From Lycorma delicatula (Eukaryota > Arthropoda > Insecta > Hemiptera > Fulgoridae): 64,000 nt of DNA. The notes beneath the pieces were generated by a model. It did no database searches and had not been told where the DNA came from. It saw nothing but the letters and a program-made list of their open reading frames with translations. The stretch lies in assembly GCF_047948215.1 (NCBI RefSeq), contig NC_134465.1, positions 12,190,522 through 12,254,521 of the forward strand, in the 5' to 3' direction. A program made the position numbers and the translations under genes. Below are positions 38,832 through 61,324 of this stretch, piece by piece; position 1 is the stretch's first letter; each line of letters begins with the position of its first letter.

Positions 38832-38837
38832 ACCATA
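38832..38837. repeat. Left 6-bp TSD (ACCATA) of palindromic element
   Basis: Identical to 61319-61324, immediately outside the two ends of the palindrome. Confidence 0.85.
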
Positions 38838-38995
38838 AGTAGAGGAGAAATGCCGGTTTAAACGCAATTTCAAGGTCATTCGACGCTGTGAACCCCTGGT
38901 GCGAGGCTAGATGAGGCGAGGTGAGCACCTCGTGCGAGGCTATAACAAGGCGAGGTGAGCACCTCGTGCGAGGCTATAACATTGAGCTACTGACA

Positions 38996-39059
38996 GCTCC
39001 GTGGCGTGAGTGGCAGAGTTTCAGCCTTTCATCCGGAGATCCCGGGTTCTAATCCCGGT
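38996..39059 (+). other. tRNA-like Pol III promoter segment in 306-bp unit
   Basis: gctccgtggcgtgagtggca (A-box-like) is followed about 30 nt later by cccgggttctaatcccgg, a perfect 5-bp T-stem with a 7-nt loop (B box). It is related to SINE family A heads elsewhere in the window. It repeats at 39302-39365 and four times inverted in the right array. It is not a functional tRNA, because the anticodon stem does not form. Confidence 0.7.
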
Positions 39060-39301
39060 AAAATAATAAAACCTTTTAAAATATAAATATACAAATTTAA
39101 TAAAAACTATAACAATTACGTCAACGAACAAGTAGATATAAATCGTTATTATTTTCCTTATGAAAAACGCTAAATAACTGCACAATCATGTTATGTGAAC
39201 CCTGGTGCGAGGCTAGATGAGGCGAGGTGAGCACCTCGTGCGAGGCTATAACAAGGCGAGGTGAGCACCTCGTGCGAGGCTATAACATTGAGCTACTGAC
39301 A

Positions 39302-39365
39302 GCTCCGTGGCGTGAGTGGTAGAGTTTCAGCCTTTCATCCGGAGATCCCGGGTTCTAATCCCGGT
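39302..39365 (+). other. tRNA-like segment, second left unit
   Basis: Same as 38996-39059 with ggtagag instead of ggcagag. Confidence 0.7.
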
Positions 39366-39581
39366 AAAATAATAAAACCTTTTAAAATATAAATATACAA
39401 ATTTAATAAAAACTATAACAATTACGTCAACGAACAAGTAGATATAAATCGTTATTATTTTCCTTATGAAAAACGCTAAATAACTGCACAATCATGTTTA
39501 GACCTGCTTATCTATTGCACACACATCTGCTCAAGTTTTAACAACAATTTTTTCCTTATAAACAGGAAACGCTTATCAACC

Positions 39582-39851
39582 GCTTGTTTCGACATCCTTA
39601 TCACCAATCACATCCGCTCGACTCTGATTAAAACAAAAATTAATCTTTTCTTTATAAAACAGAAAAACAGTCAACCCCGCATCCTACCAACTGGTATAAT
39701 TAGCGAACTTCGAACAGTGCACTACCATTTCAAAAGTGGATTTGATTGCAGACGAAGAGTTTATACTGTACGTTGTTGAATGTGATATATTTGAAAATTT
39801 TGATCCGAATATTGGTGAAGTATATGTTTATATTGAATCAATTCGGAATAT
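39582..39851 (-). other. Leader cassette 1, mirrored (right arm)
   Basis: Mirror of 39693-39962 by the arm offset, with the same TATA-like and donor sequences on the minus strand would lie at 59582-59851. This entry's coordinates cover the left-arm sequence on the opposite strand only and carry no independent feature; use 59582-59851. Confidence 0.05.
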
Positions 39852-39962
39852 ATATGAACGAAAGAAGAAGAAGCATCATAGTAAATAATCAGGTAAGTGT
39901 TTTGATTCTTAATAAGATAAGTTATGTAGAAAGCATTAATGGTGTTCTCACCTAACTTTTAG
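39693..39962 (+). promoter_or_regulatory. Leader cassette 1: TATA-like site, exon, splice donor (left arm)
   Basis: ggtataatta at 39693-39702 precedes a possible initiator (acagtg, about 39714). An exon-like stretch ends in aagaagaagaagcatcat...atcag with donor GTAAGT at 39893. A possible acceptor cctaacttttag ends at 39962, which would leave a 70-bp intron. The stretch from 39828 is repeated at 43828 just upstream of PolB. Confidence 0.45.
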
Positions 39963-40639
39963 TTCAAACACTATTTTAAAAAACTACCTAAGATAAGTCA
40001 GTGTCTTAAGAAATTAGAAATAATAACAGTAAAATCTCTGAAAATATAAATTTAATAAAAAAGTAGAATAATAAATTTTAAAAATTAAAAGAGAACTATT
40101 AACAATGTCCGCTATTATGTTATGTCATATAGATATAATTAAAATTAAATTTTGAAATATATCTGAAAAGTTAAACATATTTATTTAAACAAAATCGAAA
40201 ATGTATGACTAGTTTACGAGCTCAAAATGCCACATCCATATCGTTAATATCGTATCGATTATAATTCGATATATCGTCCTAACCTAAAGTATTCGATATA
40301 TCAGCATAACGTATTTTTAGTCGATGTTAATTTACGCGCGCAATTTTCCACATCTAATACCGTTTATATCGTTTCATCCTAACTTAATTAGTCGGTGTTA
40401 ATATTAAGCATGCAAAGTGATACATCCAGTATAATTAAAATATAAATTATCCATATCTAACATTAATCAAAAAACTAGAAAAAGTATTTTTTCTTATTTG
40501 TTTAAGATATGCTCAATAAGCTGCCATATAATATCGTATTACAACTTTACGTAACTCTTCAAGTTTTTTCGGCTGCAAATAAAAATTATTATAAAAATTA
40601 CATCATGCTTCATGTGGGTAACAAAAAAAATATATGTAA

Positions 40640-41910
40640 GGTACATAAAAACGATGTAAACGAATATAAAATGAACATAAAAGATCATGAAAGAACCATA
40701 ATCAAACGTGAAACATACATAAACGAACATGAACCATACCTGAACAGTATACGAAACGAACATGAAACTTACATGATAAAAACATGAATTCAACATAAAC
40801 GAACATGAAACAACTTAATCAATCATAAAATGAAAATGAAAGAGTTATAATTCAAATATTAAAGATCATAACAGAAACGTAAAAACGTCAAACAAAATGA
40901 AAATGAAAATTATTATAAACAAATATGAAATGAGCATAAAAACAATGTCAACTTTGGACGATTTCTTCATGCTTACATTGGAATTCGTAAGTGTAAATCG
41001 TACTAGTGCCTTTATCTTCTGATAACCAGCATTAGAGTTACTTAATCAGTCAAATTTAACAAGATACATAAAAACGATGTAAACGGATATAAAATGAACA
41101 TAAAAGATCATGAAAGAACCATAATCAAACGTGAAACATACATAAACGAACATGAACCATACCTGAACAGTATACGAAACGAACAAGAAACTTACATGAT
41201 AAAAACATGAATTCAACATAAACGAACATGAAACAACTTAATCAATCATAAAATGAAAATGAAAGAGTTATAATTCGAATATTAAAGATCATAACAGAAA
41301 CGAAAAAACGTCAAACAAAATGAAAATGAAAATTATTATAAACAAATATGAAATGAGCATAAAAACAATGTCAACTTTGGACGATTTCTTCATGCTTACA
41401 TTGGAATTCGTAAGTGTAAATCGTACTAGTGCCTTTATCTTCTGATAACCAGCATTAGAGTTACTTAATCAGTCAAATTTAACAAGATACATAAAAACGA
41501 TGTAAACGAATATAAAATGAACATAAAAGATCATGAAAGAACCATAATCAAACGTGAAACATACATAAACGAACATGAACCATACCTGAACAGTATACGA
41601 AACGAACATGAAAGAAACTTACATGATAAAAACATGAATTCAACATAAACGAACATGAAACAACTTAATCAATCATAAAATGAAAATGAAAGAGTTATAA
41701 TTCGAATATTAAAGATCATAACAGAAACGTAAAAACGTCAAACAAAATGAAAATGAAAATTATTATAAACAAATATGAAATGAGCATAAAAACAATGTCA
41801 ACTTTGGACGATTTCTTCATGCTTACATTGGAATTCGTAAGTGTAAATCGTACTAGTGCCTTTATCTTCTGATAACCAGCATTAGAGTTACTTAATCAGT
41901 CAAATTTAAC
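40640..41910 (+). repeat. 423-bp tandem repeat array (3 copies, left arm)
   Basis: Units start near 40651, 41074 and 41497 (acgatgtaaacg), spaced exactly 423 bp. Within each unit the words aacgaacatgaa and acataaacgaacatgaa recur. A diverged fourth unit lies at 44370-44790. The 92-codon frame at 40509-40787 reads into the first unit and is probably not coding. Confidence 0.9.
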
Positions 41911-42045
41911 TATAACTCAGTTGAGTTTGGTTTGATTTACGACTACATTAAAACTTAAGTAAATGTACAAGACATCTAAATTTAATTATCAAATGGACTT
42001 TACTCGTTTAAATCTGATCCGATTTCAAATGTTATTTGAGTTCCA

Positions 42046-42168
42046 TCATATTAGTGGTCATATGTTGTATACCTGACTGGATACACATAGACGAGGTAAC
42101 GCACAGGCTTTTAATAATCGTTTTTTCCTATTCGAGGTCAAGACGTCGCTATCGATCACGTGATACCA
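42046..42168 (+). repeat. Direct repeat, upstream copy (left arm)
   Basis: atcatattagtggtcatatg...gctatcgatcacgtg is repeated at about 43437-43555. The mirror copies are at 57376-57498 and 55989-56107. Confidence 0.85.
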
Positions 42169-42772
42169 TTTCAATTTTTTTGTAATATCTGAAACAAATT
42201 AAAATAACATATATCGTAACATTGTTTTTTTTTGGTGTGTTTCATTATATATATTATTTATTTTATTTGTTTAAAAGTATTTTTTAATTGTATAAAGTAT
42301 TTTTTTAATTGTATTTATTTTAATTGTTTAAAAGTATTTATTTTTTTTTTAATTTATAAAGTATTTTTTTAAATTTAATTAAATAATTTATTTGATTTGA
42401 TTTGATTGAAAGTTATTTGATAATACCATACTGTTCCATTAGTATTTATTTTTTTAATTAATTAAAGTAAAACTTACCTTGCTAATTAAGATGAAAATGT
42501 AATGATCTCTCTCCGATCGATGTATTCACTTTCAATAACAGATTGCGAATGATGAAATCACACAAATTTTTTCACTTATTTACAATCACAACCGGATTTA
42601 AACGACGCAAGTTATAGGTAAGAAATTAAAATAAATACGATTCGTGGAATTATTTATCGTATCGATAAGAACAAAAAAAAAAAAATAATTGGCTTGTGGT
42701 TTTAATTATTAAAAAAAAAACATTTTCCTTATCGCATCCGCTCTTATTAGAGACGACGTTCCAGTTCGCACG

Positions 42773-42795
42773 TGCGCACTAACGGCTAGTGCGCA
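42773..42795. other. GC-rich stem-loop (left arm)
   Basis: Perfect 9-bp inverted repeat tgcgcacta/tagtgcgca around a 5-nt loop (acggc), in otherwise AT-rich DNA between the 423-bp array and the promoter. The mirror is at 56749-56771. Function is unknown; a replication or regulatory role is conceivable. Confidence 0.7.
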
Positions 42796-42910
42796 TGCGC
42801 CGATTCATATACAAAAACGGCCCGAAAGAGAGAAGAGAGAAAATAAAGAGGGAAGGGGCAGGATAGGCATTCGTGTATCGGAGACTGCAACAATGGTATA
42901 GAAACGGTGG

Positions 42911-42913
<3 letters not shown>

Positions 42914-42964
<51 letters not shown>
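42914..42964. repeat. (GT)n microsatellite (left arm)
   Basis: About 50 bp. The mirror (CA)n at 56580-56630 has the same length. Confidence 0.95.
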
Positions 42965-42966
<2 letters not shown>

Positions 42967-42984
42967 TAATATTACTGTACCATA

Positions 42985-43430
42985 GCAAATACGATTCTTG
43001 GAATTATTTTTCGTGACGATAAGAATAATTTATGACTTTGATAAAAAAAATAATTGGCTCAATTCGCGGAATTAATTATAATGACGATAACAATAAAAAA
43101 TTATTTATAGCGTTGATAAGAAATAATTGGCTCGACCGGATGTGATTAGTAGATAAGAACTTAAAATAAAAATAATTTATGGCTTTGATAAGAAAAATAA
43201 TTGACTCAACCAGATGTTGTTAAGCAATTAAAATAAATATTGATAATAATAATTTATGGCTTTGATAAAAAAAAAAAAATAATTGGTTCAATTCGTGGAA
43301 TTAATTATCGTGACGATAACAATAAAAAATTATTTATAGCGTTGATAAGAAATAATTGGCTCGACCGGATGTGATTAGTAGATAAGAACTTAAAATAAAA
43401 ATAATTTATGGCTTTATAAATTATATTAGG
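42985..43430 (+). repeat. Imperfect ~230-bp direct repeats (left arm)
   Basis: Blocks such as gcgttgataagaaataattg, gctcgaccggatgtgattag and aataatttatggctttgata occur twice or more in AT-rich DNA. The mirror is at about 56114-56559. Confidence 0.75.
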
Positions 43431-43510
43431 TATACATCATATTAGTGGTCATATGTTGTATACCTGACTGGATACACATAGACGAGGTAACGCGCAGGCT
43501 TTTAATAATC

Positions 43511-43740
43511 GTTTTTTTTCCTGTTCGAGGTCAAGACGTCGCTATCGATCACGTGGCTTGGGTGTGGTACTTTGTGCGCGTATGATAATTTCCATGTTTC
43601 TTTTGGTCGAGATGACGTAATGGTTTTTTCCTGTTCAAACATGTTTGAGCTCACGCGGCTTGGGTGTGGTACTTTGTGCGCGTGTAATAACTGTCATGTT
43701 TTCTATTGGTCGAGATGACGGCATTGTGTGAGTGGTGGGA
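43511..43740 (+). promoter_or_regulatory. Duplicated ~102-bp block upstream of PolB promoter
   Basis: cacgYggcttgggtgtggta followed by ctttgtgcgcgt occurs at 43550 and 43652. Each is followed by tggtcgagatgacg. The tandem position just before the TATA box suggests upstream activating sites (inference). The mirror is at 55804-56033. Confidence 0.5.
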
Positions 43741-43747
43741 AGAAGAG

Positions 43748-43757
43748 GTATATAATG
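43748..43757 (+). promoter_or_regulatory. TATA box of PolB (left arm)
   Basis: gtatataatg lies about 30 nt before an initiator-like tcattc (A at 43783). This is a typical Pol II core promoter geometry. Confidence 0.65.
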
Positions 43758-43782
43758 CGTTATTATAAATACTGTTTAACTC

Positions 43783-43891
43783 ATTCACTTCTTGTAACTC
43801 GCTGTGTTCGCTTGTATCTCATGTTTATATTGATTCAATACGGAATATATATTTGAACCAAAGAAGAAGAAGCATCATATTAAATAACAAG
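43783..43891 (+). other. PolB leader exon with splice donor (left arm)
   Basis: Predicted non-coding first exon. It ends in aataacaag with donor GTAAGTG at 43892. The likely partner is the acceptor ttttttgttgcag ending at 45321, four nt before the PolB ATG. An alternative small intron to 43970 is possible. Confidence 0.5.
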
Positions 43892-45325
43892 GTAAGTGTT
43901 TTGATTCTTAATAAGATATGTTTATGTAGAAAGCCTCTAAGCATTAATGGTGTTCTCACCTAACTTTTAGTACAAACACTAATTAAAACCTTCCTAAGAT
44001 AAGTCAGTATCTTAGAAATTAGAAATATTAACAGTAAAATCTCTTAAAATATAAATTTAAAAAATTAAAAGAGAACTATTAAAAATGTCCTCTTTTATGT
44101 TATGTCACATAGATATAATTAAAATTAAATTTTGATGTATATCTGAAAAATTAAACATTTATTTAATTAAACAAAATCGAAAATGTTGTTTCCATTATAG
44201 AAACATCTAATTAAAAAAGTAAATATAATTACATTGTCTATGCATATAATCTTCGCTCATATTATATAACGAATCATGTTTTTTTAAATTGCAAATTTTA
44301 TTGTAATCTGTACAACGTAAGTTATAGACTACTCATGCTTCATGTGGCTAACAAAAAAAAATATGTAAGGTACATAAAAACGATGGATATAAACGAATAT
44401 AAAATGAACATAAAAGATCATGAAAGGATCATAATCGAACGTGATACACGCATAAACGAACATGAACCATACCTGAACAGTATACGAAACGAACATAAAA
44501 GTTCATGAAACTAACATGATAAAAACATGAATTCAACATAAACGAACATGAAATAACTTAAACAATCATAAAATGAAAATGAAAGTCATAATTCGAATAT
44601 TAAAGATCATAACATAAACGTAAAAGCATCCTAAATTATTATAAACAAATATGAAATGTGCATAAAAACAATGATAACTTTGGTCGATTTCTTCATGCTT
44701 ACATTGGAATTCGTAAGCGTAAATCGTACTAGCGCCTTTATCTTCTGATAACCAGCATTAGAGTTACTTAAACAGTCAAATTTATCTGTAACTCACACGA
44801 GTTTGGTTTAATTTACGACTAAGTTAAAACTTAAGTATACAAGACAACTAAATTAAATTATCAACTGAACTTTACTCGTTTGATTAACTCTTATCCGATT
44901 TCAATTGTTATCGATTCATTCTTACGAATCGATACTGTGTACACACATCCGGTTGAAAATTAAAACTCAAGTAGCTGCTCCCTTTAAAGTCCGCCAACTA
45001 GGTACTTAAGCTGTCTCCTCTAGGCGATTTCTTCAGTCCTGCATTGGATTTCGTGAGAGTAAGTTGTACTAGTGCTTATATTCGGATAACCAGCCTTAGA
45101 TTTACTTAAACAGTCAAATTGTAAGTTATCCGAGTTTGGTTTGATCTACGCCTACAACATCATAATTGTTAGCTTAATACAGCAATTAGACCGACTACGA
45201 TAAACTTAATGTAAGTATATAAGACTACATAAATATTATTCGCATTATTAATTCTCACCCGATATATAGGCTCATATTCGACCACAATCTAATTCGTGAT
45301 TGTTACTGTTTTTTGTTGCAGGAAC

Positions 45326-48300
45326 ATGTCTGGAGAAAACCGTTACAAGAAGATCAGACTCTCTGCGATCGATCAAGTCGGCCGGTTCATCCTTGTTGAA
45401 AACGCATTCAATTGCAACCTGGCCACATATTACTACAAGAATGACAATCAAACAAACAAGGACATCGGACCACTTTTAAATTCTATGAAGCTTGAAATCG
45501 GAACGTTGCTGACCGAAACGGTTGATCGCTATGGTTCTATAAAATACAACATCTTAATCGAGCTGTCGTACGAAAAGCCAATGATCGATGAGTATAGAGA
45601 CATATGCTTCAAAACAAAAAACTTTGCGGTCATCAACGTGAACGATATCGAACATTCGATAGAAGCTGCGTTCGAGTCATTGCTTCGCGAAGAGACCAAT
45701 TTTGAAGGAAAGCAGAGCGGTTGGACGCTTCTGAGTATTGATGGGGTCTTAGTTCGCATAAATCGTTACCGTCCACTCAAAGGGTCATCTTTCATTCCTC
45801 TACCTAAATCCATCCTACACAAACATGCCGTCGTCAACGTGAAGAATAACGACGATCTTTGTTTCGTATGGTCGATCCTGTGCAAGTACGTGCAAGGTCG
45901 TGATCGTAATCGTATAGATAAGAGATACGACGCCCTATTAAACAAATACAATTTTGGTTCCCTTAACTTTCCAACACCTTTGAGTGATGTCTACAAATTC
46001 GAAAAAATGAACGATGGGGTTTCTGTAAACATTTACTCGGTAGATGAAAACGAAAACATCATTCCGATAAAGGTTTGTTCTGCTGAAAAACATGACCATT
46101 TTGATCTTTTGTTGCTAGTCGAAGGCGATCGCCATCATTTCTGTTTCATTTCCGATTTCGAAAGGTTGATAGGATCCCAGCTGACGAAACATGAGCATGG
46201 AATTAAGATTTGTAAAAGGTGTTTCACCTACTACAAAACTGATAAAGATTGTGCAAGAAAAATGGCGGATCATCTCGAAAGATGCAGCAGTAATCCTCCT
46301 GCAAGAGTAGTTCTCCCCGAAGTGCAGGAAGACGGCTCTCAACCCGTATTGCAATTCAAGAATTACCATCATATGTTTCCAGTTCCTATAGTATGTTACG
46401 CCGATTTTGAATGTATCTTAAAACCGATCGCAAAGTGCTATCCTAACCCCAAAAGTTCATACACCGTTTCTACGGAGCAGCACATCCCCATGAGCTATTG
46501 TGTGTATTTTGTAGTTCATCCTTCCACGCCGGAAGCCGTTCGAAACGTGATTCCAACAGACCCTATACTTTACAGAGGAAAAGAAGCGTCCTGTTCGTTT
46601 ATGCAACTCCTCCATGACGTAGCTGCTCGTGTTGGTGAAGTCCTAAAAGTGTACAAAGTAATGGAAATTTCTGAAGAAGACAGAAATTCCTTCGACTCAG
46701 CCACAAAGTGTCAGATGTGTAATGTGAAATTCACCCCTGAGGTCCGACCGGTGAGAGACCACTGTCACATCACAGGAAACTACCGCGCAGCACTATGTTC
46801 CATATGTAACCTGAAAAGGGTTAGTCGGACCTTCATCCCCGTTTTCATACATAACAGTTCAAACTATGATTCCCATTTCATCGTCAGAGAACTAGGCTAT
46901 GACGAAAAACAAATCACTGTGATCCCGAACTCTACCGAAAAATACATCTCCTTTTCGAAGAGAATCAACGACCGTATTTCCGTTCGCTTTATCGACACCT
47001 ACCGATTCATGGCCTCCAGCCTAGATTACCTTGTAAAAACCATACCTACCGATAAATTCAACCATACCAAAAGGTTTTTCAACGAATCGGATATGCCCCT
47101 TGTTACCAGAAAAGGAGTCTACCCATACGAGTACACCACCTCTTGGGAAACCCTAGAAGAGACCTCTCTTCCTCCGATAGAGGAATTCTACAGCAGTCTC
47201 ACGGGATCGGGTATATCCGAAGATGACTATGAACATGCGATAAAAGTGTGGGACCATTTCAAAATAAACACACTAGGTCAATATAGCGATCTTTACCTAA
47301 AATGCGACGTGCTGCTCCTGTCGGACGTTTTCGAAAATTTCAGATCCCTTTGCCTTAGGGAATATAGTCTAGACTGTGCGCATTACTTCACCCTGCCTGG
47401 TTTCTCGTTCGATGCGATGTTGTTCAAAACTAATATCCAACTTGAACTGATCACAGATTACGACATCTACATGTTCTTTGAAAAAGGTATCCGCGGTGGT
47501 ATTTCGGTTTGTGTTAAAAAACATGGGGAAGCAAATAACCCCTACATCCCAGATGGATATAATCCCCATCAACCGCCCAAATACCTCATCTACCTTGACG
47601 CCAACAACTTATACGGCTGGGCCTTGAGCCAATGTCTTCCGTACAAGGATATACGGTGGGTAACGACTGAAGAAAAAGATTCTGTGATGGCAAATTTCAT
47701 GGCCATACCAGACGATGGTCCAACCGGATATATACTCGAAGTAGATGTCGAATATCCCTCACACCTCCACAATGCACACAGTGACTTTCCCTTTCTGCCT
47801 ACGAACGAAACCCCTCCGATCTCTAATTACCCCAAACTCATCCCATCGTTACGGAACAAGTCGAAATATATCTGTCACTTCTCCACCTTAAAACAGGCGA
47901 TTAGAAACGGACTTCGGGTTACCAAAGTTCACAAAATGTTGCAGTTCGCACAGTCCGCATGGTTGAAGGGCTACATTGAGCTCAACACGCTGAATCGCCA
48001 AGCAGCTCGAAATGAATTTGAAAAAGACCTCTTTAAACTGATGAACAATGCAGTTTTCGGAAAATGTATGGAGAACGTCAGAAAGAGGGTTAACATCGAA
48101 TTGGTTTCCTCTGAAAAAAGGCTGATGAAGCTCATCAGTAAACCTACCTTTCAGGATAGGATCATATATAATGAAACTCTATGCGCCGTTCAGTGCTCTA
48201 AGGAAAAGATATATTTCGACAAACCTATATACGTGGGTCTGTCCGTGCTCGAGTTGAGCAAGACTCTTATGTATAACTTTCACTATGATGTTATGAAAAA

Positions 48301-48877
48301 AAAGTACGGATCGAAAATATCTCTACTGTACATGGATACGGACAGTTTTTTCTACGAAGTGAAAACTGACGACTTTTACCAAGACCTGCAAGAAAGTACG
48401 TTCGCAGATTACTTCGACACGTCCGACTACCCGGTAGCTCATCCCTGTCACTCGCTGAAGAATAAGAAAGTGATAGGAAAATTCAAGGATGAGTGCAGCG
48501 GAATACCGATCCGAGAGTTCATCGGCTTGAGAGCAAAACTATATACGTTCAAAACTGGTCCTGGAAAAATTATCAAAAAAGCTAAAGGAATAAAAAAGAA
48601 TGTAGTTAAAAACGAAATTGAATTTGAAGATTATAAAAAGTGTTTGCTCGATAGTAATACTGTTGTGTACAGGACCATGAAGATGTTTAGATCTAAAAAA
48701 CACATAATCGAAACTATCCAACAGAACAAATTAGCTCTAAGTTATTTTGATGATAAACGTGTCGCTATAGACAGACTAAATACTCTGCCGTGGGGTCATG
48801 TCAGTATCCCGCTGGAATTGAATCAAGTATTTAACGATAGGACCGAGGCGACCACATCGGAGGATGTGATGGAGTAA
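45326..48877 (+). CDS. polB: Protein-primed family B DNA polymerase (left arm)
   Basis: 1183 residues, intact, counted from ATG 45326. The frame opens at 45296, but the first ten codons are a splice-acceptor tract, so I reject that start. Exonuclease motifs: YADFE (D360, E362), Exo II N..YDSHF (D515), Exo III YLKCD (D661). Polymerase: motif A LDANNLYG (D758), motif B KLMNNAVFGK (904-913), motif C YMDTDS (D1004, D1006) and KLY (1071-1073). A zinc-binding endonuclease VII-like insert lies before Exo II (C462, C465, DHCH 478-481, C491, C494). A C2HC finger (C296, C299, H316, C320) precedes Exo I. About 280 N-terminal residues belong to this arthropod PolB family but have no assigned function. 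The set is typical of Polinton-type, protein-primed polymerases. All catalytic residues are kept. Expected role: replication of the element's linear DNA. Base composition is richer in G+C than the surroundings. Confidence 0.93.
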   Translation: MSGENRYKKIRLSAIDQVGRFILVENAFNCNLATYYYKNDNQTNKDIGPLLNSMKLEIGTLLTETVDRYGSIKYNILIELSYEKPMIDEYRDICFKTKNFAVINVNDIEHSIEAAFESLLREETNFEGKQSGWTLLSIDGVLVRINRYRPLKGSSFIPLPKSILHKHAVVNVKNNDDLCFVWSILCKYVQGRDRNRIDKRYDALLNKYNFGSLNFPTPLSDVYKFEKMNDGVSVNIYSVDENENIIPIKVCSAEKHDHFDLLLLVEGDRHHFCFISDFERLIGSQLTKHEHGIKICKRCFTYYKTDKDCARKMADHLERCSSNPPARVVLPEVQEDGSQPVLQFKNYHHMFPVPIVCYADFECILKPIAKCYPNPKSSYTVSTEQHIPMSYCVYFVVHPSTPEAVRNVIPTDPILYRGKEASCSFMQLLHDVAARVGEVLKVYKVMEISEEDRNSFDSATKCQMCNVKFTPEVRPVRDHCHITGNYRAALCSICNLKRVSRTFIPVFIHNSSNYDSHFIVRELGYDEKQITVIPNSTEKYISFSKRINDRISVRFIDTYRFMASSLDYLVKTIPTDKFNHTKRFFNESDMPLVTRKGVYPYEYTTSWETLEETSLPPIEEFYSSLTGSGISEDDYEHAIKVWDHFKINTLGQYSDLYLKCDVLLLSDVFENFRSLCLREYSLDCAHYFTLPGFSFDAMLFKTNIQLELITDYDIYMFFEKGIRGGISVCVKKHGEANNPYIPDGYNPHQPPKYLIYLDANNLYGWALSQCLPYKDIRWVTTEEKDSVMANFMAIPDDGPTGYILEVDVEYPSHLHNAHSDFPFLPTNETPPISNYPKLIPSLRNKSKYICHFSTLKQAIRNGLRVTKVHKMLQFAQSAWLKGYIELNTLNRQAARNEFEKDLFKLMNNAVFGKCMENVRKRVNIELVSSEKRLMKLISKPTFQDRIIYNETLCAVQCSKEKIYFDKPIYVGLSVLELSKTLMYNFHYDVMKKKYGSKISLLYMDTDSFFYEVKTDDFYQDLQESTFADYFDTSDYPVAHPCHSLKNKKVIGKFKDECSGIPIREFIGLRAKLYTFKTGPGKIIKKAKGIKKNVVKNEIEFEDYKKCLLDSNTVVYRTMKMFRSKKHIIETIQQNKLALSYFDDKRVAIDRLNTLPWGHVSIPLELNQVFNDRTEATTSEDVME

Positions 48878-48889
48878 TTCGTGGCTAAC

Positions 48890-49229: not shown

Positions 49230-49233
<4 letters not shown>

Positions 49234-49275: not shown

Positions 49276-49281
<6 letters not shown>

Positions 49282-53600: not shown

Positions 53601-54218
53601 GTTTAATAGGGCGTCGTATCTCTTATCTATACGATTACGATCACGACCTTGCACGTACTTGCACAGGATCGACCATACGAAACAAAGATCGTCGTTATTC
53701 TTCACGTTGACGACGGCATGTTTGTGTAGGATGGATTTAGGTAGAGGAATGAAAGATGACCCTTTGAGTGGACGGTAACGATTTATGCGAACTAAGACCC
53801 CATCAATACTCAGAAGCGTCCAACCGCTCTGCTTTCCTTCAAAATTGGTCTCTTCGCGAAGCAATGACTCGAACGCAGCTTCTATCGAATGTTCGATATC
53901 GTTCACGTTGATGACCGCAAAGTTTTTTGTTTTGAAGCATATGTCTCTATACTCATCGATCATTGGCTTTTCGTACGACAGCTCGATTAAGATGTTGTAT
54001 TTTATAGAACCATAGCGATCAACCGTTTCGGTCAGCAACGTTCCGATTTCAAGCTTCATAGAATTTAAAAGTGGTCCGATGTCCTTGTTTGTTTGATTGT
54101 CATTCTTGTAGTAATATGTGGCCAGGTTGCAATTGAATGCGTTTTCAACAAGGATGAACCGGCCGACTTGATCGATCGCAGAGAGTCTGATCTTCTTGTA
54201 ACGGTTTTCTCCAGACAT
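50667..54218 (-). CDS. polB: Protein-primed family B DNA polymerase (right arm)
   Basis: Second copy, encoding the same 1183-residue protein without a single amino-acid difference from the 45326 copy. ATG at 54218-54216, directly after the acceptor tract, and stop at 50669-50667. It is transcribed towards the spacer, so the two genes converge. Identity over 3.5 kb, together with substitutions in the non-coding arms, suggests recent origin of the palindrome, gene conversion between arms, or selection on the protein. All catalytic motifs listed for the left copy are present. Confidence 0.93.
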   Translation of the reverse strand: MSGENRYKKIRLSAIDQVGRFILVENAFNCNLATYYYKNDNQTNKDIGPLLNSMKLEIGTLLTETVDRYGSIKYNILIELSYEKPMIDEYRDICFKTKNFAVINVNDIEHSIEAAFESLLREETNFEGKQSGWTLLSIDGVLVRINRYRPLKGSSFIPLPKSILHKHAVVNVKNNDDLCFVWSILCKYVQGRDRNRIDKRYDALLNKYNFGSLNFPTPLSDVYKFEKMNDGVSVNIYSVDENENIIPIKVCSAEKHDHFDLLLLVEGDRHHFCFISDFERLIGSQLTKHEHGIKICKRCFTYYKTDKDCARKMADHLERCSSNPPARVVLPEVQEDGSQPVLQFKNYHHMFPVPIVCYADFECILKPIAKCYPNPKSSYTVSTEQHIPMSYCVYFVVHPSTPEAVRNVIPTDPILYRGKEASCSFMQLLHDVAARVGEVLKVYKVMEISEEDRNSFDSATKCQMCNVKFTPEVRPVRDHCHITGNYRAALCSICNLKRVSRTFIPVFIHNSSNYDSHFIVRELGYDEKQITVIPNSTEKYISFSKRINDRISVRFIDTYRFMASSLDYLVKTIPTDKFNHTKRFFNESDMPLVTRKGVYPYEYTTSWETLEETSLPPIEEFYSSLTGSGISEDDYEHAIKVWDHFKINTLGQYSDLYLKCDVLLLSDVFENFRSLCLREYSLDCAHYFTLPGFSFDAMLFKTNIQLELITDYDIYMFFEKGIRGGISVCVKKHGEANNPYIPDGYNPHQPPKYLIYLDANNLYGWALSQCLPYKDIRWVTTEEKDSVMANFMAIPDDGPTGYILEVDVEYPSHLHNAHSDFPFLPTNETPPISNYPKLIPSLRNKSKYICHFSTLKQAIRNGLRVTKVHKMLQFAQSAWLKGYIELNTLNRQAARNEFEKDLFKLMNNAVFGKCMENVRKRVNIELVSSEKRLMKLISKPTFQDRIIYNETLCAVQCSKEKIYFDKPIYVGLSVLELSKTLMYNFHYDVMKKKYGSKISLLYMDTDSFFYEVKTDDFYQDLQESTFADYFDTSDYPVAHPCHSLKNKKVIGKFKDECSGIPIREFIGLRAKLYTFKTGPGKIIKKAKGIKKNVVKNEIEFEDYKKCLLDSNTVVYRTMKMFRSKKHIIETIQQNKLALSYFDDKRVAIDRLNTLPWGHVSIPLELNQVFNDRTEATTSEDVME

Positions 54219-55652
54219 GTTCCTGCAACAAAAAACAGTAACAATCACGAATTAGATTGTGGTCGAATATGAGCCTATATATCGGGTGAGAATTAATAAT
54301 GCGAATAATATTTATGTAGTCTTATATACTTACATTAAGTTTATCGTAGTCGGTCTAATTGCTGTATTAAGCTAACAATTATGATGTTGTAGGCGTAGAT
54401 CAAACCAAACTCGGATAACTTACAATTTGACTGTTTAAGTAAATCTAAGGCTGGTTATCCGAATATAAGCACTAGTACAACTTACTCTCACGAAATCCAA
54501 TGCAGGACTGAAGAAATCGCCTAGAGGAGACAGCTTAAGTACCTAGTTGGCGGACTTTAAAGGGAGCAGCTACTTGAGTTTTAATTTTCAACCGGATGTG
54601 TGTACACAGTATCGATTCGTAAGAATGAATCGATAACAATTGAAATCGGATAAGAGTTAATCAAACGAGTAAAGTTCAGTTGATAATTTAATTTAGTTGT
54701 CTTGTATACTTAAGTTTTAACTTAGTCGTAAATTAAACCAAACTCGTGTGAGTTACAGATAAATTTGACTGTTTAAGTAACTCTAATGCTGGTTATCAGA
54801 AGATAAAGGCGCTAGTACGATTTACGCTTACGAATTCCAATGTAAGCATGAAGAAATCGACCAAAGTTATCATTGTTTTTATGCACATTTCATATTTGTT
54901 TATAATAATTTAGGATGCTTTTACGTTTATGTTATGATCTTTAATATTCGAATTATGACTTTCATTTTCATTTTATGATTGTTTAAGTTATTTCATGTTC
55001 GTTTATGTTGAATTCATGTTTTTATCATGTTAGTTTCATGAACTTTTATGTTCGTTTCGTATACTGTTCAGGTATGGTTCATGTTCGTTTATGCGTGTAT
55101 CACGTTCGATTATGATCCTTTCATGATCTTTTATGTTCATTTTATATTCGTTTATATCCATCGTTTTTATGTACCTTACATATTTTTTTTTGTTAGCCAC
55201 ATGAAGCATGAGTAGTCTATAACTTACGTTGTACAGATTACAATAAAATTTGCAATTTAAAAAAACATGATTCGTTATATAATATGAGCGAAGATTATAT
55301 GCATAGACAATGTAATTATATTTACTTTTTTAATTAGATGTTTCTATAATGGAAACAACATTTTCGATTTTGTTTAATTAAATAAATGTTTAATTTTTCA
55401 GATATACATCAAAATTTAATTTTAATTATATCTATGTGACATAACATAAAAGAGGACATTTTTAATAGTTCTCTTTTAATTTTTTAAATTTATATTTTAA
55501 GAGATTTTACTGTTAATATTTCTAATTTCTAAGATACTGACTTATCTTAGGAAGGTTTTAATTAGTGTTTGTACTAAAAGTTAGGTGAGAACACCATTAA
55601 TGCTTAGAGGCTTTCTACATAAACATATCTTATTAAGAATCAAAACACTTAC

Positions 55653-55761
55653 CTTGTTATTTAATATGATGCTTCTTCTTCTTTGGTTCAAATATATATT
55701 CCGTATTGAATCAATATAAACATGAGATACAAGCGAACACAGCGAGTTACAAGAAGTGAAT
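55653..55761 (-). other. PolB leader exon with splice donor (right arm)
   Basis: Mirror of 43783-43891. The acceptor is at 54223-54224. Confidence 0.5.
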
Positions 55762-55786
55762 GAGTTAAACAGTATTTATAATAACG

Positions 55787-55796
55787 CATTATATAC
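55787..55796 (-). promoter_or_regulatory. TATA box of PolB (right arm)
   Basis: Mirror of 43748-43757. Confidence 0.65.
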
Positions 55797-56577
55797 CTCT
55801 TCTTCCCACCACTCACACAATGCCGTCATCTCGACCAATAGAAAACATGACAGTTATTACACGCGCACAAAGTACCACACCCAAGCCGCGTGAGCTCAAA
55901 CATGTTTGAACAGGAAAAAACCATTACGTCATCTCGACCAAAAGAAACATGGAAATTATCATACGCGCACAAAGTACCACACCCAAGCCACGTGATCGAT
56001 AGCGACGTCTTGACCTCGAACAGGAAAAAAAACGATTATTAAAAGCCTGCGCGTTACCTCGTCTATGTGTATCCAGTCAGGTATACAACATATGACCACT
56101 AATATGATGTATACCTAATATAATTTATAAAGCCATAAATTATTTTTATTTTAAGTTCTTATCTACTAATCACATCCGGTCGAGCCAATTATTTCTTATC
56201 AACGCTATAAATAATTTTTTATTGTTATCGTCACGATAATTAATTCCACGAATTGAACCAATTATTTTTTTTTTTTTATCAAAGCCATAAATTATTATTA
56301 TCAATATTTATTTTAATTGCTTAACAACATCTGGTTGAGTCAATTATTTTTCTTATCAAAGCCATAAATTATTTTTATTTTAAGTTCTTATCTACTAATC
56401 ACATCCGGTCGAGCCAATTATTTCTTATCAACGCTATAAATAATTTTTTATTGTTATCGTCATTATAATTAATTCCGCGAATTGAGCCAATTATTTTTTT
56501 TATCAAAGTCATAAATTATTCTTATCGTCACGAAAAATAATTCCAAGAATCGTATTTGCTATGGTACAGTAATATTA

Positions 56578-56579
<2 letters not shown>

Positions 56580-56630
<51 letters not shown>
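56580..56630. repeat. (CA)n microsatellite (right arm)
   Basis: Mirror of 42914-42964. Confidence 0.95.
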
Positions 56631-56633
<3 letters not shown>

Positions 56634-56748
56634 CCACCGTTTCTATACCATTGTTGCAGTCTCCGATACACGAATGCCTATCCTGCCCCTTCCCTCTTTA
56701 TTTTCTCTCTTCTCTCTTTCGGGCCGTTTTTGTATATGAATCGGCGCA

Positions 56749-56771
56749 TGCGCACTAGCCGTTAGTGCGCA
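56749..56771. other. GC-rich stem-loop (right arm)
   Basis: Exact mirror of 42773-42795. Confidence 0.7.
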
Positions 56772-57633
56772 CGTGCGAACTGGAACGTCGTCTCTAATAA
56801 GAGCGGATGCGATAAGGAAAATGTTTTTTTTTTAATAATTAAAACCACAAGCCAATTATTTTTTTTTTTTGTTCTTATCGATACGATAAATAATTCCACG
56901 AATCGTATTTATTTTAATTTCTTACCTATAACTTGCGTCGTTTAAATCCGGTTGTGATTGTAAATAAGTGAAAAAATTTGTGTGATTTCATCATTCGCAA
57001 TCTGTTATTGAAAGTGAATACATCGATCGGAGAGAGATCATTACATTTTCATCTTAATTAGCAAGGTAAGTTTTACTTTAATTAATTAAAAAAATAAATA
57101 CTAATGGAACAGTATGGTATTATCAAATAACTTTCAATCAAATCAAATCAAATAAATTATTTAATTAAATTTAAAAAAATACTTTATAAATTAAAAAAAA
57201 AATAAATACTTTTAAACAATTAAAATAAATACAATTAAAAAAATACTTTATACAATTAAAAAATACTTTTAAACAAATAAAATAAATAATATATATAATG
57301 AAACACACCAAAAAAAAAACAATGTTACGATATATGTTATTTTAATTTGTTTCAGATATTACAAAAAAATTGAAATGGTATCACGTGATCGATAGCGACG
57401 TCTTGACCTCGAATAGGAAAAAACGATTATTAAAAGCCTGTGCGTTACCTCGTCTATGTGTATCCAGTCAGGTATACAACATATGACCACTAATATGATG
57501 GAACTCAAATAACATTTGAAATCGGATCAGATTTAAACGAGTAAAGTCCATTTGATAATTAAATTTAGATGTCTTGTACATTTACTTAAGTTTTAATGTA
57601 GTCGTAAATCAAACCAAACTCAACTGAGTTATA

Positions 57634-58904
57634 GTTAAATTTGACTGATTAAGTAACTCTAATGCTGGTTATCAGAAGATAAAGGCACTAGTACGATTTA
57701 CACTTACGAATTCCAATGTAAGCATGAAGAAATCGTCCAAAGTTGACATTGTTTTTATGCTCATTTCATATTTGTTTATAATAATTTTCATTTTCATTTT
57801 GTTTGACGTTTTTACGTTTCTGTTATGATCTTTAATATTCGAATTATAACTCTTTCATTTTCATTTTATGATTGATTAAGTTGTTTCATGTTCGTTTATG
57901 TTGAATTCATGTTTTTATCATGTAAGTTTCTTTCATGTTCGTTTCGTATACTGTTCAGGTATGGTTCATGTTCGTTTATGTATGTTTCACGTTTGATTAT
58001 GGTTCTTTCATGATCTTTTATGTTCATTTTATATTCGTTTACATCGTTTTTATGTATCTTGTTAAATTTGACTGATTAAGTAACTCTAATGCTGGTTATC
58101 AGAAGATAAAGGCACTAGTACGATTTACACTTACGAATTCCAATGTAAGCATGAAGAAATCGTCCAAAGTTGACATTGTTTCTATGCTCATTTCATATTT
58201 GTTTATAATAATTTTCATTTTCATTTTGTTTGACGTTTTTACGTTTCTGTTATGATCTTTAATATTCGAATTATAACTCTTTCATTTTCATTTTATGATT
58301 GATTAAGTTGTTTCATGTTCGTTTATGTTGAATTCATGTTTTTATCATGTAAGTTTCTTGTTCGTTTCGTATACTGTTCAGGTATGGTTCATGTTCGTTT
58401 ATGTATGTTTCACGTTTGATTATGGTTCTTTCATGATCTTTTATGTTCATTTTATATCCGTTTACATCGTTTTTATGTATCTTGTTAAATTTGACTGATT
58501 AAGTAACTCTAATGCTGGTTATCAGAAGATAAAGGCACTAGTACGATTTACACTTACGAATTCCAATGTAAGCATGAAGAAATCGTCCAAAGTTGACATT
58601 GTTTTTATGCTCATTTCATATTTGTTTATAATAATTTTCATTTTCATTTTGTTTGACGTTTTTACGTTTCTGTTATGATCTTTAATATTTGAATTATAAC
58701 TCTTTCATTTTCATTTTATGATTGATTAAGTTGTTTCATGTTCGTTTATGTTGAATTCATGTTTTTATCATGTAAGTTTCATGTTCGTTTCGTATACTGT
58801 TCAGGTATGGTTCATGTTCGTTTATGTATGTTTCACGTTTGATTATGGTTCTTTCATGATCTTTTATGTTCATTTTATATTCGTTTACATCGTTTTTATG
58901 TACC
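57634..58904 (-). repeat. 423-bp tandem repeat array (3 copies, right arm)
   Basis: Mirror of the left array. It carries substitutions at 58182, 58241 and 58938 relative to it. Confidence 0.9.
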
Positions 58905-59581
58905 TTACATATATTTTTTTTGTTACCCACATGAAGCGTGATGTAATTTTTATAATAATTTTTATTTGCAGCCGAAAAAACTTGAAGAGTTACGTAAAGT
59001 TGTAATACGATATTATATGGCAGCTTATTGAGCATATCTTAAACAAATAAGAAAAAATACTTTTTCTAGTTTTTTGATTAATGTTAGATATGGATAATTT
59101 ATATTTTAATTATACTGGATGTATCACTTTGCATGCTTAATATTAACACCGACTAATTAAGTTAGGATGAAACGATATAAACGGTATTAGATGTGGAAAA
59201 TTGCGCGCGTAAATTAACATCGACTAAAAATACGTTATGCTGATATATCGAATACTTTAGGTTAGGACGATATATCGAATTATAATCGATACGATATTAA
59301 CGATATGGATGTGGCATTTTGAGCTCGTAAACTAGTCATACATTTTCGATTTTGTTTAAATAAATATGTTTAACTTTTCAGATATATTTCAAAATTTAAT
59401 TTTAATTATATCTATATGACATAACATAATAGCGGACATTGTTAATAGTTCTCTTTTAATTTTTAAAATTTATTATTCTACTTTTTTATTAAATTTATAT
59501 TTTCAGAGATTTTACTGTTATTATTTCTAATTTCTTAAGACACTGACTTATCTTAGGTAGTTTTTTAAAATAGTGTTTGAA

Positions 59582-59851
59582 CTAAAAGTTAGGTGAGAAC
59601 ACCATTAATGCTTTCTACATAACTTATCTTATTAAGAATCAAAACACTTACCTGATTATTTACTATGATGCTTCTTCTTCTTTCGTTCATATATATTCCG
59701 AATTGATTCAATATAAACATATACTTCACCAATATTCGGATCAAAATTTTCAAATATATCACATTCAACAACGTACAGTATAAACTCTTCGTCTGCAATC
59801 AAATCCACTTTTGAAATGGTAGTGTACTGTTCGAAGTTCGCTAATTATACC
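59582..59851 (-). promoter_or_regulatory. Leader cassette 1 (right arm)
   Basis: Mirror copy of 39693-39962. Donor GTAAGT is at 59651 reading leftwards, and the acceptor-like cttttag ends at 59582. Confidence 0.45.
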
Positions 59852-60045
59852 AGTTGGTAGGATGCGGGGTTGACTGTTTTTCTGTTTTATAAAGAAAAGA
59901 TTAATTTTTGTTTTAATCAGAGTCGAGCGGATGTGATTGGTGATAAGGATGTCGAAACAAGCGGTTGATAAGCGTTTCCTGTTTATAAGGAAAAAATTGT
60001 TGTTAAAACTTGAGCAGATGTGTGTGCAATAGATAAGCAGGTCTA

Positions 60046-61269
60046 AACATGATTGTGCAGTTATTTAGCGTTTTTCATAAGGAAAATAATAACGATTTAT
60101 ATCTACTTGTTCGTTGACGTAATTGTTATAGTTTTTATTAAATTTGTATATTTATATTTTAAAAGGTTTTATTATTTTACCGGGATTAGAACCCGGGATC
60201 TCCGGATGAAAGGCTGAAACTCTACCACTCACGCCACGGAGCTGTCAGTAGCTCAATGTTATAGCCTCGCACGAGGTGCTCACCTCGCCTTGTTATAGCC
60301 TCGCACGAGGTGCTCACCTCGCCTCATCTAGCCTCGCACCAGGGTTCACATAACATGATTGTGCAGTTATTTAGCGTTTTTCATAAGGAAAATAATAACG
60401 ATTTATATCTACTTGTTCGTTGACGTAATTGTTATAGTTTTTATTAAATTTGTATATTTATATTTTAAAAGGTTTTATTATTTTACCGGGATTAGAACCC
60501 GGGATCTCCGGATGAAAGGCTGAAACTCTGCCACTCACGCCACGGAGCTGTCAGTAGCTCAATGTTATAGCCTCGCACGAGGTGCTCACCTCGCCTTGTT
60601 ATAGCCTCGCACGAGGTGCTCACCTCGCCTCATCTAGCCTCGCACCAGGGTTCACATAACATGATTGTGCAGTTATTTAGCGTTTTTCATAAGGAAAATA
60701 ATAACGATTTATATCTACTTGTTCGTTGACGTAATTGTTATAGTTTTTATTAAATTTGTATATTTATATTTTAAAAGGTTTTATTATTTTACCGGGATTA
60801 GAACCCGGGATCTCCGGATGAAAGGCTGAAACTCTGCCACTCACGCCACGGAGCTGTCAGTAGCTCAATGTTATAGCCTCGCACGAGGTGCTCACCTCGC
60901 CTTGTTATAGCCTCGCACGAGGTGCTCACCTCGCCTCATCTAGCCTCGCACCAGGGTTCACATAACATGATTGTGCAGTTATTTAGCGTTTTTCATAAGG
61001 AAAATAATAACGATTTATATCTACTTGTTCGTTGACGTAATTGTTATAGTTTTTATTAAATTTGTATATTTATATTTTAAAAGGTTTTATTATTTTACCG
61101 GGATTAGAACCCGGGATCTCCGGATGAAAGGCTGAAACTCTGCCACTCACGCCACGGAGCTGTCAGTAGCTCAATGTTATAGCCTCGCACGAGGTGCTCA
61201 CCTCGCCTTGTTATAGCCTCGCACGAGGTGCTCACCTCGCCTCATCTAGCCTCGCACCAGGGGTTCACA
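60046..61269 (-). repeat. Right terminal 306-bp tandem repeats (4 copies)
   Basis: Four units, 1224 bp, the same unit as at 38887-39498. Only the innermost unit has the ggtagag variant in its A-box region, like the inner unit of the left arm. Confidence 0.95.
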
Positions 61270-61318
61270 GCGTCGAATGACCTTGAAATTGCGTTTAAAC
61301 CGGCATTTCTCCTCTACT

Positions 61319-61324
61319 ACCATA
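61319..61324. repeat. Right 6-bp TSD (ACCATA)
   Basis: Matches 38832-38837. The palindrome ends at 61318. Confidence 0.85.

What the first reader, a model, noticed from the sequence alone, without database searches (positions are those of the whole stretch)
38832..61324. 22.5-kb palindromic element with two PolB genes and an exact 6-bp target-site duplication
The two arms (10.7 and 11.3 kb) end exactly where a direct repeat ACCATA begins on each side, so the whole palindrome was inserted as one unit. Polinton/Maverick elements make 6-bp TSDs and have ends starting with AG, but they normally have much shorter terminal inverted repeats and 15-20 kb of different genes between them. Here nearly the whole element is inverted repeat and the only recognised gene is PolB, twice. 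This could be a new class of replication-only parasite of Polintons, fixed in a dimeric or snap-back form produced by protein-primed replication.
Basis: partly seen in the sequence, partly recalled or inferred. Interest (0 to 1): 0.96.

Follow-up and report, generated by a model that had tools for sequence, protein, structure and literature searches.

The report
Mirror-image PolB transposons, lanternfly genome
A genome that appears to be the spotted lanternfly's carries a family of roughly 22,000-base jumping elements, each nearly a mirror image of itself with the same DNA-copying gene in both halves and no recognised gene for inserting itself, so these elements likely copy their own DNA but probably borrow the insertion enzyme of related virus-like elements.

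Summary
The 22,481-bp palindrome (38838-61318) ends at a 6-bp duplication (ACCATA) on each side; its arms differ by 4 substitutions plus indels, and both PolB proteins are identical and intact. It is no one-off. All 10 have the family tip at both ends and a perfect 6-bp duplication, at 9 sites. Two sites have paralogous uninterrupted copies.

PolB is under purifying selection (dN/dS about 0.10-0.18 against the window copy) and folds like phi29 and adintovirus polymerases. None of 129 scored integrase matches lies in the 10 elements, but 8 of 9 related single-PolB loci have one about 9-10 kb away. In 6 of 10 copies the two arms are each other's closest relatives, so palindromes are often homogenised. 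Yet one unequal arm pair was passed to two independent insertions, so the whole palindrome is a transmitted unit.

I read this as a Polinton-derived, replication-only element with a self-complementary genome. Protein priming and trans-acting integrase are inferred; the candidate helpers' ends were not reached. Eight searches of the held literature listed no such element.

The parts
38832..38837 (.). left copy of 6-bp target-site duplication ACCATA
61319..61324 (.). right copy of 6-bp target-site duplication ACCATA
38838..49568 (+). left arm of the palindrome, 10,731 bp
49990..61318 (-). right arm of the palindrome, 11,329 bp, reverse complement of the left arm
38838..38886 (+). left tip, 49 bp, begins AGTAGAGGAG; a 93-bp query starting here matches both ends of all 10 palindromic copies (97-100% in 7 copies, 74-75% in C2, C3, C9)
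61270..61318 (-). right tip, mirror of the left tip
38887..39498 (+). 306-bp tandem unit, 2.0 copies, left arm
60046..61269 (-). 306-bp tandem unit, 4.0 copies, right arm
40638..41910 (+). 423-bp tandem unit, 3 copies, left arm
57634..58906 (-). 423-bp tandem unit, 3 copies, right arm
39824..40204 (+). first copy of a duplicated module (84% alike) that reads like a 5' exon with a splice donor (reading by eye)
43821..44186 (+). second copy of the module, upstream of PolB
45326..48877 (+). PolB gene of the left arm, 1,183 aa, intact (ATG follows a splice-acceptor-like ttgcag, by eye; ORF listed from 45296)
50667..54218 (-). PolB gene of the right arm, identical protein
46670..46813 (+). Endonuclease_7-type insert within left PolB (residues 459-506 of P0001)
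49569..49651 (.). 83-bp core, the non-palindromic centre of copies C4a/b/c
49652..49989 (.). 338-bp segment D, present on both arms in C4a/b/c, C1, C2, C3 and C9 but on only one side here and in C6; in pieces in C13
35439..35516 (+). uninterrupted copy of the dispersed repeat into which copy C9 inserted (paralogous empty site)

Best explanation
This is one copy of a family of inserted mobile elements of about 22 kb that are nearly full-length palindromes with a Polinton-type PolB in each arm; they likely replicate by protein priming from their two identical tips and are probably inserted by an integrase supplied in trans by related Polinton-like elements. Shown: ten palindromic copies at nine distinct sites, all with the same family of tips and perfect 6-bp duplications; PolB open over its length in 18 of 20 arms and conserved by purifying selection; none of the scored integrase matches inside any copy; arms homogenised in six of ten copies; the whole palindrome passed on as a unit in at least one burst. 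Inferred: the linear duplex is copied by PolB from a terminal-protein domain at its own N-terminus. The displaced strand, being self-complementary along its whole length, would fold back into a hairpin whose single stem end is again a double-stranded origin. Copying round such hairpins, or repairing them, would make the two arms alike, would turn a rearranged centre symmetric (as in copy C13), and would regenerate a two-ended palindrome from one half. The finished linear molecule would then be joined to a staggered 6-bp cut by the helper integrase.
For: One search reports 40 PolB matches (39 scored of 2,984 candidates), 20 of which form ten head-to-head pairs. Tips at both ends of all ten. Perfect 6-bp duplications 10 of 10: ACCATA, GACGGC, CGTACT, TCCATT, TGTGTT (C4b and C4c, same flanks), GACATC, AATAAG, TACACC, AATAGA. 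Paralogous empty sites, ungapped across the junction, for C6 (66/73) and C9 (67/73, 70/80, 69/78). dN/dS of window PolB against C1 0.097, C13 0.105, C8 0.107, C9 0.129, C6 0.131, C3 0.139, C2 0.167, C4a 0.183 and the 81% relative 0.109; C9 against C2 0.216; C8 against the 81% relative 0.126; pairs with the 65% family saturated. Arms in a copy differ at 0-0.16% over about 5.7 kb; the nearest other copy is 0.26-2.57% away for six copies, whose arms pair in a tree. Copy C13 has a rearranged but symmetric centre; the long centre of C2 is itself inverted over a further 1.8 kb at 99.8%. C4a and C4b share an unequal arm pair (10 mismatches in 1,593) in opposite orientations at different sites. PolB model pLDDT 87; phi29 polymerase, including its terminal-protein complex at rank 3, tops the PDB list; PolBs of two 'densovirus' records, adintoviruses and a MELD virus are among the top six of the viral list. 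Integrase matches 9-10 kb from PolB at 8 of the 9 loci of 64-65% PolB and at the 73% one. PMC4061559, abstract and passages: polintoviral PolBs carry an N-terminal domain proposed as terminal protein. PMC8097293 passages: intact vertebrate Mavericks have 6-bp duplications and (AGT)2 among their end motifs; three copies here begin AGTAGT.
Against: The ends of the integrase-bearing relatives were not reached: 1.54 kb past the integrase in two copies shows no boundary, so shared ends are untested. Protein priming and a terminal protein are not demonstrated. Only 129 of 579 integrase candidates were scored, against a distant query (28-30% identity), so an unusual integrase inside the elements could be missed; one of the nine 64-65% loci (C9:46845755) and the 81% locus had no integrase listed nearby. 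Four of ten copies (C4a, C4b, C4c, C6) do not have arms nearest to each other over the PolB region, and C4a/b/c keep arms that differ, so homogenisation is not obligatory. PolB of one C1 arm has a stop, and the match in one C3 arm lacks the first 93 residues. The missing D segment in the window and in C6 is also what ordinary repair of palindrome centres would give.
Confidence: 0.7

Rival explanations
1. The transmitted unit is a single 11-kb arm; a fresh snap-back at each transposition doubles it just before insertion.
For: Arms within six of ten copies are each other's closest relatives; the rearranged centre of C13 is symmetric.
Against: C4a and C4b, at different sites with different duplications, carry the same unequal arm pair and the same 83-bp core in opposite orientations, which needs transmission of the whole palindrome at least there.
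Confidence: 0.12
2. The element is autonomous: an unrecognised integrase, spliced or highly diverged, is encoded between tip and PolB or in the long centres.
For: About 6.5 kb of the window's left arm has no assigned function; there is a duplicated exon-like module.
Against: No ORF of 150 aa or more besides PolB; ten of 65 stop-to-stop ORFs of 50 aa or more listed around one arm give only sub-threshold Pfam matches; none of 129 scored integrase matches lies in the ten spans. The tip-to-ATG stretches of C2, C3 and C9 are only about 4 kb (coordinates); the C2 and C9 centres hold pieces that read as a second PolB and, in C2, arm sequence.
Confidence: 0.08
3. Mobilised by an unrelated 6-bp-duplicating DDE transposase or host activity; only the PolB is Polinton-derived.
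For: 6-bp duplications are not unique to Polintons (general knowledge); helper ends unread.
Against: Tip motif AGTAGT/AGTAGA resembles the published Maverick (AGT)2 end and co-occurs with Polinton PolB.
Confidence: 0.1
4. Palindromes formed locally after insertion of single-armed elements (inverted duplication in the chromosome).
For: PolB matches without a listed partner exist (C8, C7, C9s, C1:198326906, C2:7382898).
Against: All ten loci have tips outward and one 6-bp duplication bracketing the whole palindrome.
Confidence: 0.02
5. Assembly artefact (fold-back reads).
For: Palindromes are a known long-read artefact (general knowledge).
Against: Symmetry stops exactly at tips with differing flanks; ten loci, nine sites, different centres, and window arms that differ in repeat number.
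Confidence: 0.01

Closest known systems
Polintons/Mavericks (Polintoviruses)
   Same: Polinton-type PolB; perfect 6-bp duplications; ends AGTAG(T/A) close to the published (AGT)2//(ACT)2 motif; length 21-24 kb within the published 12.7-24.6 kb for intact vertebrate elements (PMC8097293 passages)
   Different: No integrase, capsid, ATPase or protease gene found in the window copy; terminal inverted repeats of 10-11 kb instead of 46-1,447 bp; two identical PolB genes
Adintoviruses and the metagenomic Polinton-like virus L001
   Same: L001 PolB 38% identical in the best segment, residues 102-1168 matched; adintovirus PolBs among top structural matches
   Different: L001 carries an integrase (homologues mostly tagged PF00665) and ORFs that I read as major and minor capsid protein and ATPase (labels recalled); none found in the palindrome
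Bidnaviruses
   Same: Polinton-derived PolB; a bidensovirus and a bidnavirus-like record rank 8 and 9 among viral structures; a Polinton PolB with inverted ends moved into a smaller replicon (PMC4061559 abstract and passages)
   Different: Bidnaviruses carry parvovirus-derived genes; none found here
Foldback transposons of Drosophila (FB, Galileo; recalled, not searched)
   Same: Long inverted repeats make up most of the element
   Different: As recalled they are not PolB replicons and lack a conserved polymerase gene in each arm
Self-complementary snap-back genomes of defective protein-primed viruses (adenovirus; recalled)
   Same: Terminal origin plus inverted duplication, foldable into one hairpin
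   Different: As recalled those are defective by-products; here the palindrome is a repeatedly inserted, selected lineage

Membership tests
[quoted passage not shown]
   PolB homology, conserved motifs and fold; protein priming itself not tested
Polinton/Maverick | perfect 6-bp target-site duplication | tested here: met
   10 of 10 palindromic loci, 9 distinct sites; of four short tip-to-tip derivatives tested one has it
Polinton/Maverick | conserved repeated end motif such as (AGT)2//(ACT)2 | tested here: inconclusive
   AGTAGT in 3 of 10 copies, AGTAGA in 7 of 10; the published motif is from vertebrates
Polinton/Maverick | retroviral-like integrase in the element | tested here: not met
   no match in the ten spans among 129 scored of 579 candidates; no ORF besides PolB of 150 aa or more in the window copy; a very diverged or spliced one is not excluded
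Polinton/Maverick | capsid, ATPase and protease genes | tested here: not met
   none in the window copy by ORF length and Pfam of ten small ORFs; the genome-wide capsid search returned nothing and shows nothing
Polinton/Maverick | terminal inverted repeats of 46-1,447 bp (intact vertebrate elements) | tested here: not met
   10.7-11.3 kb arms (range from PMC8097293)
Bidnaviridae | Polinton-derived PolB | tested here: met
   structural matches in BFVD, bidensovirus and bidnavirus-like records at ranks 8 and 9
Bidnaviridae | parvovirus-derived helicase and other bidnavirus genes | tested here: not met
   no further ORF of 150 aa or more and no Pfam match above cut-off in ten small ORFs of the window copy
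protein-primed replicon | terminal protein covalently on 5' ends | not testable with these tools
   only the N-terminal extension of PolB, proposed as terminal protein in relatives

The most novel reading that the evidence does not exclude
A new class of eukaryotic mobile element: a replication-only, self-complementary 'all-stem' genome that keeps just a terminal-protein/PolB gene, carries it twice so that any half molecule can rebuild the whole, and spreads through the genome as a satellite using another element's integrase (and perhaps its capsid, given the narrow 21-24 kb length range).
Probability: 0.5. Interest if true: 0.93.

Novelty: new variant of a known kind. Interest (0 to 1): 0.86.

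Why it matters
Polintons are described as large virus-like transposons that carry their own integrase, and at least one published vertebrate survey recovered candidates by integrase and PolB together (PMC8097293 passages), so it would not recover PolB-only elements. Here such an element is a selected, recently active lineage whose genome is a palindrome. It offers a natural test of how protein-primed replication, strand displacement and hairpin formation shape a genome, a possible satellite-helper relation between transposons inside an animal chromosome, and a clear case of arms homogenised within copies. Dispersed 22-kb palindromes with near-identical arms would also be a hazard for genome stability and assembly.

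Tried and rejected
Assembly artefact and local inverted duplication: rejected by tips and duplications at all ten loci. Centre 'flip' as evidence of isomerisation: I first read the reversed 83-bp core of C4a against C4b as a true inversion, but their arms are swapped too, so it is only the orientation of insertion; dropped. Obligatory snap-back at each cycle: rejected as the sole route by the C4a/C4b pair. Capsid search with the L001 major capsid protein: empty and uninformative. Single-sequence search of viral contigs found no relative; the alignment search found only L001. PDB search by sequence found no polymerase; the fold search did. Pfam PF03175 does not hit this PolB although several listed homologues carry it. 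tRNA and Rfam scans were empty. Solitary tips L050 and L055 showed no integrase-like ORF by eye. Short tip-to-tip elements: of four tested one has the duplication (C7, GCCGGG) and three do not; two further possible pairs (C5:166713820-166723090, C3:58445128-58445971) were not tested. Rows dropped: the unpaired C8, C7 and C9s were left out of the within-pair counts; C4c was left out of the nine joined-flank queries because its flanks equal those of C4b; in C3 + the PolB match begins at residue 94, which shortens its count to 5,419 sites; a name filter kept C11 and C13 out of the 'nearest copy' of C1, but the matrix of the same call (+ arms) puts them at 2.74% and 2.71%, so the 2.57% stands; only alignments over 1,000 bp counted for the nearest copy. 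The C3 centre was not fetched.
Full report
THE OBSERVATION. The window holds a 22,481-bp palindrome, 38838-61318, whose arms (10,731 and 11,329 bp) are 99.77% identical over 10,685 aligned columns. The arms differ by 4 substitutions, five short indels and 612 bp, which is two extra copies of a 306-bp tandem unit near the right tip. The symmetry stops at the tips AGTAGAGGAG...CTCCTCTACT, each bordered by ACCATA, and the sequences outside differ.

GENE CONTENT. The only ORFs of at least 150 aa in the element are two PolB genes, one per arm, with identical 1,183-aa products from the ATG at 45326 and its mirror. Of 65 stop-to-stop ORFs of 50 aa or more listed around one arm, ten outside PolB were scanned and gave only sub-threshold Pfam matches. 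PolB matches Pfam above cut-off only through an Endonuclease_7-type insert. It is nevertheless a clear member of a large PolB group: 378 homologues, of which the best 120 are listed; named hits are mostly insects, with a spider and a coral. Polymerase motifs are conserved in an alignment of 25 sequences (motif names recalled). A model with mean pLDDT 87 has phi29 DNA polymerase as the top solved match, the complex with its terminal protein at rank 3. In the viral library the top six matches include PolBs of two records named densovirus, of adintoviruses and of a MELD virus, with bidensovirus and bidnavirus-like records at ranks 8 and 9. A metagenomic Polinton-like virus contig (L001) encodes a 38%-identical PolB beside an integrase and ORFs that I read as capsid proteins and ATPase (labels from recall). 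Its integrase homologues are mostly tagged PF00665.

WHERE IT IS. The window is G000:C11:12190522-12254521 of an assembly of 2.2 Gb in 14 contigs. Contigs C1 (404,011,691 bp) and C9 (133,192,330 bp) have exactly the lengths given for contigs of Lycorma delicatula proteins P0004, P0013 and P0007, so the host is almost certainly the spotted lanternfly, a fulgorid. This identification is an inference from lengths.

IT IS A FAMILY OF PALINDROMES. Searching that genome with the PolB protein gave 40 matches, from 39 scored of 2,984 candidates. Twenty of them form ten head-to-head pairs. Eighteen of these 20 arms match essentially full length without a stop; C1 - has one stop and the C3 + match lacks the first 93 residues. 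A search with the first 93 bp of the element gave 41 matches (40 scored of 94 candidates) and found the tip facing outward at both ends of all ten pairs, at 97-100% identity in seven copies and 74-75% in C2, C3 and C9. The ten elements are 21,214 to 24,170 bp long (mean 22,080, SD 882). All ten are bordered by a perfect 6-bp duplication: C11 (window) ACCATA, C13 GACGGC, C6 CGTACT, C4a TCCATT, C4b and C4c TGTGTT, C1 GACATC, C9 AATAAG, C2 TACACC, C3 AATAGA. C4b and C4c lie about 430 kb apart and have identical 1.5-kb flanks, so they count as one insertion later duplicated (or an assembly duplication). That leaves nine distinct sites. Joined flanks of nine insertions were compared with the window and fetched loci only. 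C6 and C9 lie in dispersed repeats, and uninterrupted copies align without gaps across the junction (C6 66/73; C9 67/73, 70/80 and 69/78, the last at window 35439-35516), each with one copy of the 6 bp, exact in two of these four alignments and one or two bases different in the others. The other seven found no empty site in that limited sequence.

ENDS. Tips begin AGTAGAGGAG (C11, C13, C1), AGTAGAATAG (C6, C4a-c) or AGTAGTATAG (C9, C2, C3). Passages of PMC8097293 give for intact vertebrate Mavericks the end motifs (AGT)2//(ACT)2, (AG)3//(CT)3 and a third type, 6-bp duplications, terminal inverted repeats of 46-1,447 bp and lengths of 12.7-24.6 kb. They also say that candidates were recovered by integrase and PolB together, so that survey would not have recovered an element of this kind.

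SELECTION. Between the window PolB and other copies, synonymous changes greatly exceed the neutral share. dN/dS is 0.097 (C1; 57 synonymous, 22 non-synonymous), 0.129 (C9), 0.139 (C3), 0.167 (C2) and 0.107 (C8, unpaired); against C13, C6 and C4a it is 0.105, 0.131 and 0.183 on 14-17 changes. The 81% relative gives 0.109, C8 against it 0.126, and C9 against C2 0.216; pairs with the 65% family are saturated at synonymous sites. PolB has therefore been needed during spread.

HOW THE ARMS EVOLVE. Over about 5.7 kb around PolB the arms of one copy differ at 0-9 sites (0-0.16%). The nearest other copy differs by 2.57% for C1, 0.90% for C9, 0.48% for C2 and C3, and 0.26% for C11 and C13. For C4a, C4b, C4c and C6, a recent burst, another copy is as close as or closer than the partner arm. 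In a tree the arms of C1, C9, C3, C11 and C13 pair with support 0.94-1.00 and those of C2 are identical. Outer 1.6-kb stretches agree: no mismatch between arms of C1, C9, C2, C3 and C6. Against a simple rule, C4a, C4b and C4c have arms that differ at 10, 10 and 11 of 1,593 outer sites, all within the first 710 bp (one single-base gap lies further in). C4a (TCCATT) and C4b (TGTGTT) carry the same unequal pair in opposite orientations. So the molecule that inserted at two places was a whole, slightly asymmetric palindrome; homogenisation is frequent but not obligatory.

THE CENTRE. With A = 48878-49568, core = 49569-49651 and D = 49652-49989, the copies read: C1, C2, C3, C9: A D' core [further centre] core' D A'. 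C4b, C4c: A D' core D A'. C4a: the same in the other orientation. Window: A core D A', one D missing. C6: one D missing on the other side of the core with 62 bp of A. C13: a rearranged series that is symmetric about the middle. In C2 the further centre is itself inverted over 1.8 kb at 99.8%; C9 has a comparable layered inversion (the C3 centre was not fetched). These centres hold fragments that read, by eye, as the N-terminal half of a second, divergent PolB (only sub-threshold Pfam matches), and in C2 also arm sequence. A symmetric but rearranged centre is most simply made by copying one half onto the other; loss of one D is also what ordinary repair of palindrome centres could do.

INTEGRATION MACHINERY. 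With the L001 integrase as query, 129 of 579 candidates were scored. None of the 129 lies within any of the ten palindromes. Eight of the nine loci whose PolB is 64-65% identical, and the 73% one at C1:104202567, have an integrase-like frame (268-326 aa, E 2.0e-12 to 7.8e-14) about 9-10 kb beyond PolB on the opposite strand; C9:46845755 and the 81% locus had none listed nearby. The stronger matches of that search lie elsewhere and were not examined. The 65% locus L027 also has a Cyclin_N ORF upstream and a Hemopexin ORF downstream. These elements are the likeliest helpers. The capsid search was empty and says nothing.

MECHANISM. Shown: selected PolB, open in 18 of 20 arms; identical tips; 6-bp duplications; transmission as a palindrome in one burst; homogenisation in six copies; differing centres; none of the scored integrase matches inside. 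Inferred: PolB, with an N-terminal domain that has been proposed as the terminal protein in Polintons and bidnaviruses (PMC4061559 abstract and passages), starts at both tips by protein priming and displaces a strand. That strand is self-complementary throughout and would fold into a stem whose end is again an origin, so every displaced strand, and every half molecule, could be rebuilt into a two-ended palindrome. A helper integrase then would insert the linear product. The adenovirus panhandle and self-complementary parvovirus vectors are the nearest working analogies (recalled).

NOVELTY. Eight searches of the held open-access library, seen as listings, named no paper on a palindromic or PolB-only Polinton; most subscription papers are not held, so this is weak evidence of absence. 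I rate it a new variant of a known kind: it would work like a Polinton replicon, but fails the integrase, capsid and short-repeat tests of membership.

Noticed in passing
L027 (G000:C7:132320497-132327003) and eight further 64-65% PolB loci: An integrase-bearing element (8 of 9 loci) with a Cyclin_N ORF (454 aa), a PolB and a Hemopexin ORF; an unusual gene set for a Polinton relative. Domains were checked in L027 only.
   Followed up: partly
L032 and L033 (centres of copies C2 and C9): Fragments that read as a second, divergent PolB N-terminal region lie in the long palindromic centres, in inverted copies.
   Followed up: partly
G000:C4:168120791-168142004 and C4:168550271-168571711: Two copies about 430 kb apart with identical 1.5-kb flanks: a segmental duplication or an assembly duplication.
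   Followed up: no
G000:C7:779894-788486: An 8.6-kb tip-to-tip derivative with a truncated single PolB and an intact 6-bp duplication (GCCGGG).
   Followed up: partly
window 38887-39498 and 49420-49530: The 306-bp unit and the inner arm contain a tRNA-like B-box stretch (GGGTTC...), as in SINE heads; recalled motif, ARAGORN and Rfam found nothing.
   Followed up: no
window 1044-3176: A LINE-type ORF (Exo_endo_phos + RVT_1), with related pieces at 17740-18603, 21461-22207 and 29537-29768.
   Followed up: no
ten palindromic loci of G000: Total length stays near 22 kb although C2, C3 and C9 have short outer arms and long centres and the younger copies the reverse; a packaging-size limit is possible but the copies are not independent.
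   Followed up: no
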